Source: Synechococcus sp. C9
GTDB taxonomy: Bacteria; Cyanobacteriota; Cyanobacteriia; Gloeomargaritales; Gloeomargaritaceae
NCBI RefSeq assembly: GCF_022984075.1
Contig: NZ_JALAAD010000001.1
Coordinates: forward strand, 1,158,455 to 1,222,454
Direction: 5' to 3'
Length of the DNA stretch: 64,000 nt
The notes below the pieces were generated by a model. It had not been told where the DNA came from. It did not search any database and saw nothing but the letters and a program-made list of their open reading frames with translations. Position 1 is the stretch's first letter. Each line of letters opens with the position of its first letter. Positions 52,296 to 54,182 of this stretch are shown here, piece by piece. The translations under genes were made by a program, and so were the position numbers.

Positions 52296-52724
52296 ATGAG
52301 TCCCCCGTCCCGACCCTTGGAAGTCACCCCGGAAAATCTGGGGCGCATTTTGGATATTGTTGAGCGTCTCGCCCACGACAACCAGGCGCTCACCCACCAG
52401 GTGGAGTTGCTGATTCAGCAGGTGGAAGATGCCCACAATTGCATTCGGGAATTGTCTAAGCTGATCCGGGAAATCTGGGACAATTTGGAGGGACGCTGGG
52501 ACCGCCTGGAGCAGGGGTTAGAGCATATTGATTCCCAACAGGACGGGTTGCAAGGCCGCTGTGACCATTTGATTACCCTGATGAGCCGCCCGTTTTGGCA
52601 ACAACTCCAGGAAGCCAGTGCCCCGGAATGGATGGTGAAACAGGCCTTTGAGGAATATATCCGCCGGTTGAACCATGCCCTGGAGCAGGAACCGGAATCG
52701 CCGCCGGAAGAGGAACAGGCGTAA
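52296..52724 (+). CDS. Coiled-coil hypothetical protein
   Basis: 142 residues from ATG 52296. Residues 15-95 form a long amphipathic helix with heptad spacing (VERLAHDNQALTHQVELLIQ), and the C-terminus is glutamate-rich. No family known to me. It ends three codons before the CobN-related gene and in the same reading frame (TAA CCC ATG), so the two are probably co-transcribed. Confidence 0.65.
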   Translation: MSPPSRPLEVTPENLGRILDIVERLAHDNQALTHQVELLIQQVEDAHNCIRELSKLIREIWDNLEGRWDRLEQGLEHIDSQQDGLQGRCDHLITLMSRPFWQQLQEASAPEWMVKQAFEEYIRRLNHALEQEPESPPEEEQA

Positions 52725-52727
52725 CCC

Positions 52728-54182
52728 ATGCCCGCTGGCCGTCGGGAACAAATTACTGCTTTGGAAACCCAGGCCGCCGTCTGGGTGGGGCAACTCTTGG
52801 CCGGCGCACCCTACGACCCACCCCCAGGCCCCCAGGCCCAACGGGTTTTGGATTGGGTGAAAACCACCCTTTTGCCCCGGGTACGGCAAACGCCCCAGGA
52901 ATTGACCCATCTCTTGCGGGGGTTACAGGGGCATTATGTGCCCAGTGGGCCAGCGGGGGCACCCACCCGGGGCCGGCCAGAGGTACTGCCCACGGGACGG
53001 AATTTTTACGGGGTGGATGGGCGGGCGATTCCCACGGAAACCGCTTGGCAGGTGGGGCAACGGGGGGCGCAGGCGGTGATTGACCGCTATACCCAAGACC
53101 AGGGGGAATACCCCCGCACCCTAGCCCTGTCCGTGTGGGGAACGGCGACGTTGCGGACGGGGGGGGAGGATTTTGCGGAAGCCCTGGCACTGTTGGGGGT
53201 GCGCCCGGTGTGGGCTGGGCCGAGCCGTCGGGTGGTGGATTTTGAGATTTTGCCCCTGGAGTTCCTGGGTCGCCCCCGGGTGGATGTGACCCTGCGGGTG
53301 TCGGGGTTCTTTCGGGATAGTTTTCCCCACCTGTTGGATTTGTTTGACCAGGCGGTGCGGGCGGTGGCCCAGTTGCCCGAGTCCCCCCAGGAGAATCCTT
53401 TGGTAGGGGTGCAGGGGATGGGATTGCCCCCGGAACAGGTGTACCTGCGGGTATTTGGCCCCAAACCGGGGAGCTACGGGGCGGGACTGCAGGGATTGAT
53501 TGCCGCCCAAAATTGGGAAACCCCTGCGGATTTGGCGACGGCTTTTCTCAATTGGAGTGGCTATGGTTATACCGGCTCAACCTGGGGTGAACCGGCCCGA
53601 GAGGCGCTGATCCAACGGTTACAAAATACGCAAATTGTCTTGCATAACCAGGACAATCGGGAGCATGACATTTTGGATTCGGATGATTATTACCAATTTC
53701 AGGGGGGGTTGAGCGTGGCGATTCGCAGTTTAACCGGCCAGCACCCCATCCTGTATCACGGGGACCACAGCCGCCCCCCTTACCTGAACATCCGCACCCT
53801 CCAGGAGGAAATCCAGCGGGTGTATCGCTCCCGGGTGGTGAACCCCAAATGGATTCAGGCGATGATGCGCCATGGGTACAAGGGGGCGTTGGAATTGGCG
53901 GCTACGGTGGATTATCTGTTTGCCTACGATGCCACCACGGCCTGCGGCAGGGATTATATGTATGCGGGCATGGCCCAAGCGTACCTGCTCGACCCGGCGG
54001 TGCAGGCGTTTTTGCGCCAGGCGAACCCCTGGGCCCTACGGGGGATGGCGGAACGGTTGTGGGAGGCACACCAGCGGGGCCAATGGTCGAACCCGGACCC
54101 AAAGATATTAGCCGCCCTGCGCCATTTGATCCATGAAACAGAAGCCCTCATTGAACAACGGGGACAAACTGCCCCACCGTAG
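52728..54182 (+). CDS. CobN-like cobaltochelatase, C-terminal part only
   Basis: 484 residues matching the last 40% of the large cobaltochelatase subunit CobN (about 1,200 residues): VLPTGRNFYGVDGRAIPTET, LALSVWGTATLRTGGEDFAE, VWAGPSRRVVDFEILPLEF, NQDNREHDILDSDDYYQFQGG and LFAYDATTACGRDYMY. The N-terminal two thirds are absent and the gene before it is an unrelated coiled-coil protein. The frame is open throughout and keeps host codon use, so it is not an obvious pseudogene; a split CobN with the other part elsewhere is plausible. The last 35 bases overlap the convergent cheA gene. Confidence 0.85.
   Translation: MPAGRREQITALETQAAVWVGQLLAGAPYDPPPGPQAQRVLDWVKTTLLPRVRQTPQELTHLLRGLQGHYVPSGPAGAPTRGRPEVLPTGRNFYGVDGRAIPTETAWQVGQRGAQAVIDRYTQDQGEYPRTLALSVWGTATLRTGGEDFAEALALLGVRPVWAGPSRRVVDFEILPLEFLGRPRVDVTLRVSGFFRDSFPHLLDLFDQAVRAVAQLPESPQENPLVGVQGMGLPPEQVYLRVFGPKPGSYGAGLQGLIAAQNWETPADLATAFLNWSGYGYTGSTWGEPAREALIQRLQNTQIVLHNQDNREHDILDSDDYYQFQGGLSVAIRSLTGQHPILYHGDHSRPPYLNIRTLQEEIQRVYRSRVVNPKWIQAMMRHGYKGALELAATVDYLFAYDATTACGRDYMYAGMAQAYLLDPAVQAFLRQANPWALRGMAERLWEAHQRGQWSNPDPKILAALRHLIHETEALIEQRGQTAPP

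What the first reader, a model, noticed from the sequence alone, without database searches (positions are those of the whole stretch)
52728..54182. Stand-alone C-terminal part of CobN
Only about the last 484 residues of CobN are encoded, with a clean start, no internal stop and host-like composition. The preceding gene is not the missing part. Either CobN is split into separate polypeptides in this lineage, or this domain has taken on another task, or the 5' part was lost recently.
Basis: partly seen in the sequence, partly recalled or inferred. Interest (0 to 1): 0.6.

Follow-up and report, generated by a model that had tools for sequence, protein, structure and literature searches.

The report
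Cobalt chelatase CobN in two pieces
In this cyanobacterium (a Gloeomargarita relative) the big protein that puts cobalt into vitamin B12 is made as two separate proteins from genes far apart on the chromosome; both halves are conserved in two separate groups of cyanobacteria, so it looks like a real two-piece enzyme and not a broken gene.

Summary
ORF 52728-54182 (+) encodes 484 aa matching the last ~450 positions of CobN (PF02514 637-1089). The complementary 731-aa N-terminal part (PF02514 1-623) lies about 122 kb away on the other strand. No full-length cobN and no cobT were found; ChlH, ChlI and ChlD are present. The same layout occurs in all 8 Gloeomargaritales and all 8 Thermostichaceae genomes searched (one incomplete genome shows only the C-part), including closed chromosomes; other cyanobacteria have one gene or contig-end fragments. 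Both halves are under purifying selection (dN/dS 0.08-0.17). The break falls in the variable linker between body domains IV and V, so the residues matching ChlH H621, E625, E660 sit on one polypeptide and the H1174 segment on the other: neither half holds a complete active site. Most likely the two chains reassemble non-covalently into an ordinary cobaltochelatase large subunit. Trees reject the two split groups as one clade unless fused G059 is included, so the split arose twice, or once with a re-fusion. All split C-parts share a YDPPPGP-type loop not found in fused CobN; possibly a docking element. No description was found in the papers held.

The parts
52728..54182 (+). cobN-C: C-terminal polypeptide of split CobN (484 aa; chelatase body domains V-VI plus two leading helices)
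   Evidence: PF02514 637-1089, 607.6 bits; TIGR02257 762-1225; Foldseek best hit M. tuberculosis CobN 7c6o although the model is of moderate confidence
52812..52832 (+). Codons for Y29-P35 (YDPPPGP) in the loop between the first two helices of cobN-C; this loop form is seen only in split C-parts
53685..53687 (+). Codon of Asp320 in NQDNREHDILDSDDYYQFQGG, the residue aligned with ChlH His1174 (active-site segment contributed by the C-part)
   Evidence: alignment; ChlH residues from PMC13297055
52722..52724 (+). TAA stop of the upstream ORF, in the same frame as cobN-C and three bases before its ATG (probable translational coupling)
   Evidence: sequence
52296..52724 (+). Upstream 142-aa coiled-coil-like ORF, linked to cobN-C in 7 of 8 Gloeomargaritales genomes; not part of CobN and absent from the cobN-C loci of G007 and of the four Thermostichaceae tested (G011, G048, G060, G061)
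   Evidence: tblastn; no Pfam match

Best explanation
The gene encodes the C-terminal half of a CobN that has been permanently split into two unlinked genes. CobN-N (731 aa, domains I-IV, elsewhere in the genome) and CobN-C (this gene, domains V-VI) most likely fold separately and associate without a covalent bond to rebuild the large, corrin-binding subunit of the aerobic cobaltochelatase. It would then be driven by ChlI/ChlD, because CobT is missing. The split runs through the flexible linker between the two halves of the body, so the active-site cavity would be formed between the two chains. Shown here: the split, its conservation, the selection, the residue distribution. Inferred: assembly of the heterodimer and its activity.
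For: Complementary parts PF02514 1-623 and 622/637-1089 with no other cobN. Same layout in all 8 Gloeomargaritales (G005 at 83% completeness shows C only) and all 8 Thermostichaceae, including single-contig chromosomes G002, G004, G011, G062 where the two genes lie 150 kb or more apart. dN/dS 0.085-0.159 for N and 0.076-0.171 for C over seven species pairs. Catalytic residues conserved in both halves: N-part H535, E539, E574 match ChlH H621, E625, E660; C-part D320 aligns with H1174. N-part alone passes the CobN equivalog cut-off, 846 against 822 bits. The break lies in a linker that varies in sequence and length in fused CobN, at the IV/V boundary by the domain description of PMC12583661. C-terminal fragments of CobN (9fpc) and ChlH (6ys9, 5ewu) have been solved alone. 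CobT absent with a working control; ChlI and ChlD present; cobB present.
Against: No physical interaction or activity has been shown. The genome also has a CbiX-type chelatase, so cobalt insertion by CobN is not proved to be needed. The C-part is below the full-length CobN cut-off on its own (678 against 822 bits), as expected for a half. The AlphaFold model of C alone is poor in domain V (pLDDT below 50 for residues 65-197), which may reflect the shallow alignment or a need for the partner.
Confidence: 0.88

Rival explanations
1. The C-part (and perhaps the N-part) has left cobalt chelation and does another job, for example as a stand-alone tetrapyrrole-binding or regulatory protein.
For: The two genes are unlinked, so they can be expressed separately; a CbiX chelatase is present. 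In Gloeomargarita cobN-C is coupled to a small coiled-coil ORF of unknown role.
Against: No CobN of one piece remains to do the usual job; the active-site segment NREHDxLDSDDYYQFQGG is invariant between split and fused forms; both parts are kept together in the complete genomes.
Confidence: 0.07
2. The gene is a decaying remnant left after loss of the 5' part of cobN.
For: Only half of the family model is encoded at this locus.
Against: The N-part is intact elsewhere; purifying selection on both parts; conserved across an order and a second family.
Confidence: 0.01
3. The split is an assembly or frameshift artefact.
For: Several apparent splits in other cyanobacteria are contig ends at or near the linker (G038, G042, G053) or frameshifts (L164).
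Against: The window gene has its own start and flanking genes inside a long contig, and the N and C genes lie at unlinked sites in several independently assembled closed genomes.
Confidence: 0.01
4. On origin, not function: one split in a common ancestor of the Gloeomargarita, Thermostichaceae and G059 (PCC 7336-like) cobN genes, followed by re-fusion in G059, instead of two independent splits.
For: Same split site and a shared YDPPPGP loop; a clade of the two split groups plus G059 is not rejected, p-AU 0.626.
Against: A clade of the split groups without G059 is rejected (p-AU 0.018 concatenated, 0.007 C-part, 0.047 N-part); ChlH places the two orders apart, though not decisively (p-AU 0.098 for one clade with G059); I saw no clear shared neighbour genes (noisy).
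Confidence: 0.35

Closest known systems
CobN, large subunit of the aerobic cobaltochelatase (TIGR02257; structures 7c6o, 9uk9, 9fpc)
   Same: Homology over the full length when both parts are joined; catalytic-site residues conserved; the organism lacks cobT and would use ChlI/ChlD-type partners as proposed for cyanobacteria (PMC9227772).
   Different: Encoded by two unlinked genes as 731-aa and 484-aa polypeptides; the full-length CobN structures (7c6o, 9uk9) are single chains of 1230-1263 residues.
ChlH/BchH, large subunit of magnesium chelatase (4zhj, 6ysg)
   Same: Same superfamily, six-domain plan and active-site geometry.
   Different: Only about 29-33% identical to either half; the genome has its own full-length ChlH (L001).
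Solved C-terminal fragments: CobN 9fpc, Thermosynechococcus ChlH T_926 truncate 6ys9, Arabidopsis ChlH 5ewu
   Same: Cover most of the stretch of the natural cobN-C, showing that this half can fold alone.
   Different: Truncated constructs, not natural proteins; they start 80-100 residues further in.
HmuS heme de-chelatase (9d26; PMC12583661)
   Same: Related six-domain chelatase body, with active-site histidines coming from the two halves of the body.
   Different: Different function, single membrane-anchored chain, mainly Bacteroidota.

Membership tests
CobN (aerobic cobaltochelatase large subunit) | Significant match to the CobN equivalog model TIGR02257 over its length | tested here: met
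   N-part 846 bits, positions 1-737, above the 822-bit cut-off; C-part 678 bits, positions 762-1225. Together they cover the model; the C-part alone is below the cut-off.
CobN (aerobic cobaltochelatase large subunit) | Single polypeptide of about 1200-1300 residues | tested here: not met
   Two unlinked genes in this genome and in its relatives (in one incomplete relative only the C-part was found). The single chain is a habit of the family, not a catalytic requirement, hence 'variant'.
CobN (aerobic cobaltochelatase large subunit) | Conserved active-site residues (ChlH H621, E625, E660 and the H1174 segment) | tested here: met
   H535, E539, E574 in the N-part; NREHDILDSDDYYQFQGG in the C-part, identical in fused CobN apart from I/L.
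CobN (aerobic cobaltochelatase large subunit) | AAA+ partners available (CobS/CobT or ChlI/ChlD) | tested here: met
   CobT not found; ChlI over its cut-off and ChlD present.
CobN (aerobic cobaltochelatase large subunit) | ATP-dependent cobalt insertion into hydrogenobyrinic acid a,c-diamide | not testable with these tools
   Needs a biochemical assay.
ChlH/BchH | Best match to ChlH/BchH models rather than CobN | tested here: not met
   BchH TIGR02025 scores 348 (C) and 332 (N) bits against 678 and 846 for CobN.

The most novel reading that the evidence does not exclude
Splitting a 1200-residue tetrapyrrole chelatase across its active site was fixed independently in two deep cyanobacterial lineages, and the new N-terminal segment of the C-subunit (fixed-length loop with PYDPPPGP) became a dedicated docking element that makes chelatase assembly controllable, for example by separate expression of the halves.
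Probability: 0.2. Interest if true: 0.7.

Novelty: new variant of a known kind. Interest (0 to 1): 0.5.

Why it matters
It shows that the class I chelatase large subunit can persist under selection, and so probably work, as two separately encoded chains, cut so that the active-site cavity is shared. That gives a natural tool for studying how the two halves of the body move during metal insertion, for CobN and by analogy for ChlH. It also concerns Gloeomargarita, the closest known relatives of plastids, and Thermostichales, an early branch of cyanobacteria, and it warns that B12-pathway annotation by length cut-offs can miscall cobN as missing or broken there.

Tried and rejected
Checked whether the 142-aa ORF upstream is the missing part or a required partner: no family match, and absent from the cobN-C loci of G007 and of four Thermostichaceae. 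Looked for an intein by eye: the ends of the two parts are plain CobN sequence and variable linker. Apparent splits in G038, G042, G053, G096, G144 and G033 are contig ends in or near the linker or gene; G158, G113 and G034 are pieces at contig ends; G050 is an 87% complete draft with a C-part only and stays unresolved. Okeania/Trichodesmium long or broken frames are repeat insertions. Gene-neighbourhood clustering was too noisy because of antisense ORFs to use as strong evidence. AlphaFold models of the halves were of moderate or low confidence (pTM 0.56 and 0.67); used only to confirm the fold family. Pattern hits for Y[DN]PPPGP in four other genomes lie outside CobN. An automatic measure of loop length mis-anchored in some rows; the fixed length was read from the alignment.

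Full report
What is there. The ORF at 52728-54182 (+) is 484 aa, opens with ATG and has no internal stop. It matches PF02514 from position 637 to 1089 of 1090 with 607.6 bits and the CobN model TIGR02257 from 762 to 1225 of 1226. The window lies in a 2.96-Mb cyanobacterial genome. Its close relatives include a 3,162,419-bp chromosome titled Gloeomargaritales cyanobacterium VI4D9 (G002/L093) and a 3,049,282-bp chromosome whose size is that of Gloeomargarita lithophora (G004; identification from memory of the genome size).

The missing part. PF02514 finds three places in the whole genome: full-length ChlH (L001), the window gene, and a 731-aa protein covering profile positions 1-623 (L002). The last is the N-terminal part of CobN; it scores 846 bits against TIGR02257 with a cut-off of 822. 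It lies about 122 kb from the window gene on the opposite strand. There is no full-length cobN.

Distribution. In the order Gloeomargaritales all 8 genomes have the C-part as a separate gene and 7 have the N-part as a separate gene; the exception, G005, is 83% complete. In the order of G011 (Thermostichales) all 8 members of its family are split, including a MAG contig titled SM2_3_2 (G061/L094), while G059 (5.07 Mb, a separate family of the same order, probably Synechococcus sp. PCC 7336) has a 1284-aa CobN. A survey with the C-part found CobN in 167 of 184 cyanobacterial genomes: the listed frames outside the two split groups are long, or lie at contig ends, or in one 87% complete draft (G050) are unresolved. 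Among 80 named loci from the GTDB-based collection the only mid-contig C-only frames outside these groups are repeat insertions, a frameshift or a very short contig. In complete chromosomes the two genes are unlinked: for example 2,988,645 and 94,383 in G004, 317,091 and 1,147,210 in G011.

Selection and residues. Nei-Gojobori dN/dS over seven species pairs is 0.085-0.159 for the N-part and 0.076-0.171 for the C-part. Published work gives H621, E625, E660 and H1174 as key residues of Synechocystis ChlH (PMC13297055). Counting along the aligned PDB chain, less a presumed 20-residue tag, reproduces 621, 625 and 660, and these are H535, E539 and E574 of the N-part. H1174 aligns with Asp320 of the C-part, which is also Asp in the fused cyanobacterial CobN aligned. 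[quoted passage not shown] The cut therefore separates the two halves of the body, and neither chain holds a complete site. Truncated C-terminal constructs of CobN and ChlH have been solved on their own (9fpc, 6ys9, 5ewu), so independent folding of such a half is plausible.

The split site. Fused CobN has a linker after '...DPL' that varies in sequence and length, then a helix (GDxVExLE), a loop, and a second helix ending LLPxL. Both split groups are cut in the first linker. In all 16 split C-parts the loop after the first helix has one length and reads YDPPPGP or a close variant (YNPPPGP, YDPAPGM, YDPPPGA). A DNA pattern for Y[DN]PPPGP hits 18 of 390 cyanobacterial genomes: 14 split C-parts and four places outside CobN. 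Fused CobN of a few lineages has looser forms such as ISPPGP (G021) or FSPQPGP (G059). The motif could thus be a docking element, or an ancestral loop kept in these lineages; I cannot separate these.

How many times. Trees of the joined sequence put the Thermostichaceae split genes with fused G059 (SH-aLRT 99) and the Gloeomargaritales apart. One clade of all split genes is rejected (p-AU 0.018; C-part 0.007; N-part 0.047). If G059 is added, one clade is not rejected (p-AU 0.626), so one split with a later re-fusion remains open. ChlH, used as a rough organism marker, puts Thermostichales first after Gloeobacter and Gloeomargaritales in the crown, with weak support, and published work likewise treats Thermostichales as the earliest branch of crown cyanobacteria (PMC10156173). 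I favour two events, at about 0.65.

Mechanism. Best supported: two chains associate non-covalently into an ordinary CobN large subunit working with ChlI/ChlD. CobT is absent with a control that rings; the AAA_5 hits inspected are MoxR, RuvB and ChlD by eye, and ChlI is present. CobB is present. A two-domain CbiX is also present, so dependence on CobN is not proved.

Known or new. PMC10156173 treats CobN of Thermostichales in a tree, and the passages read mention no split. PMC9227772 states that cyanobacteria lack cobS and cobT and may use ChlI/ChlD. Text searches for split or fission of cobN gave nothing on this. Only open-licence papers were searched, and database annotations of these genes were not seen, so prior notice elsewhere is possible.

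Noticed in passing
52296-52724 (+): A 142-aa coiled-coil-like ORF without Pfam match, 80-99% identical across seven Gloeomargarita-group genomes, sits directly before cobN-C with 3 bases between or overlapping it (translational coupling).
   Followed up: partly
54148-54182: The 3' end of cobN-C overlaps the convergent CheA-like hybrid kinase gene by 35 bases; the same overlap is seen in G004 (L040).
   Followed up: no
L100, L110, L123 (also L145, L162): Okeania and Trichodesmium CobN carries a large in-frame repeat insertion of several hundred residues in the N-terminal part, near residue 650 of the N-part.
   Followed up: partly
L065, L066, L067: Gloeomargaritales genomes G001, G003 and G006 carry a second BchH/ChlH-type large subunit (TIGR02025, 1547 bits in L066), absent from the window genome.
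   Followed up: partly
G000:C1:2010482-2011177: The window genome has a 334-aa frame with two CbiX domains in tandem.
   Followed up: no
L052/L053 (G053), L054/L055 (G038): Proline-rich linkers in CobN break short-read assemblies at the same place and mimic split genes.
   Followed up: yes
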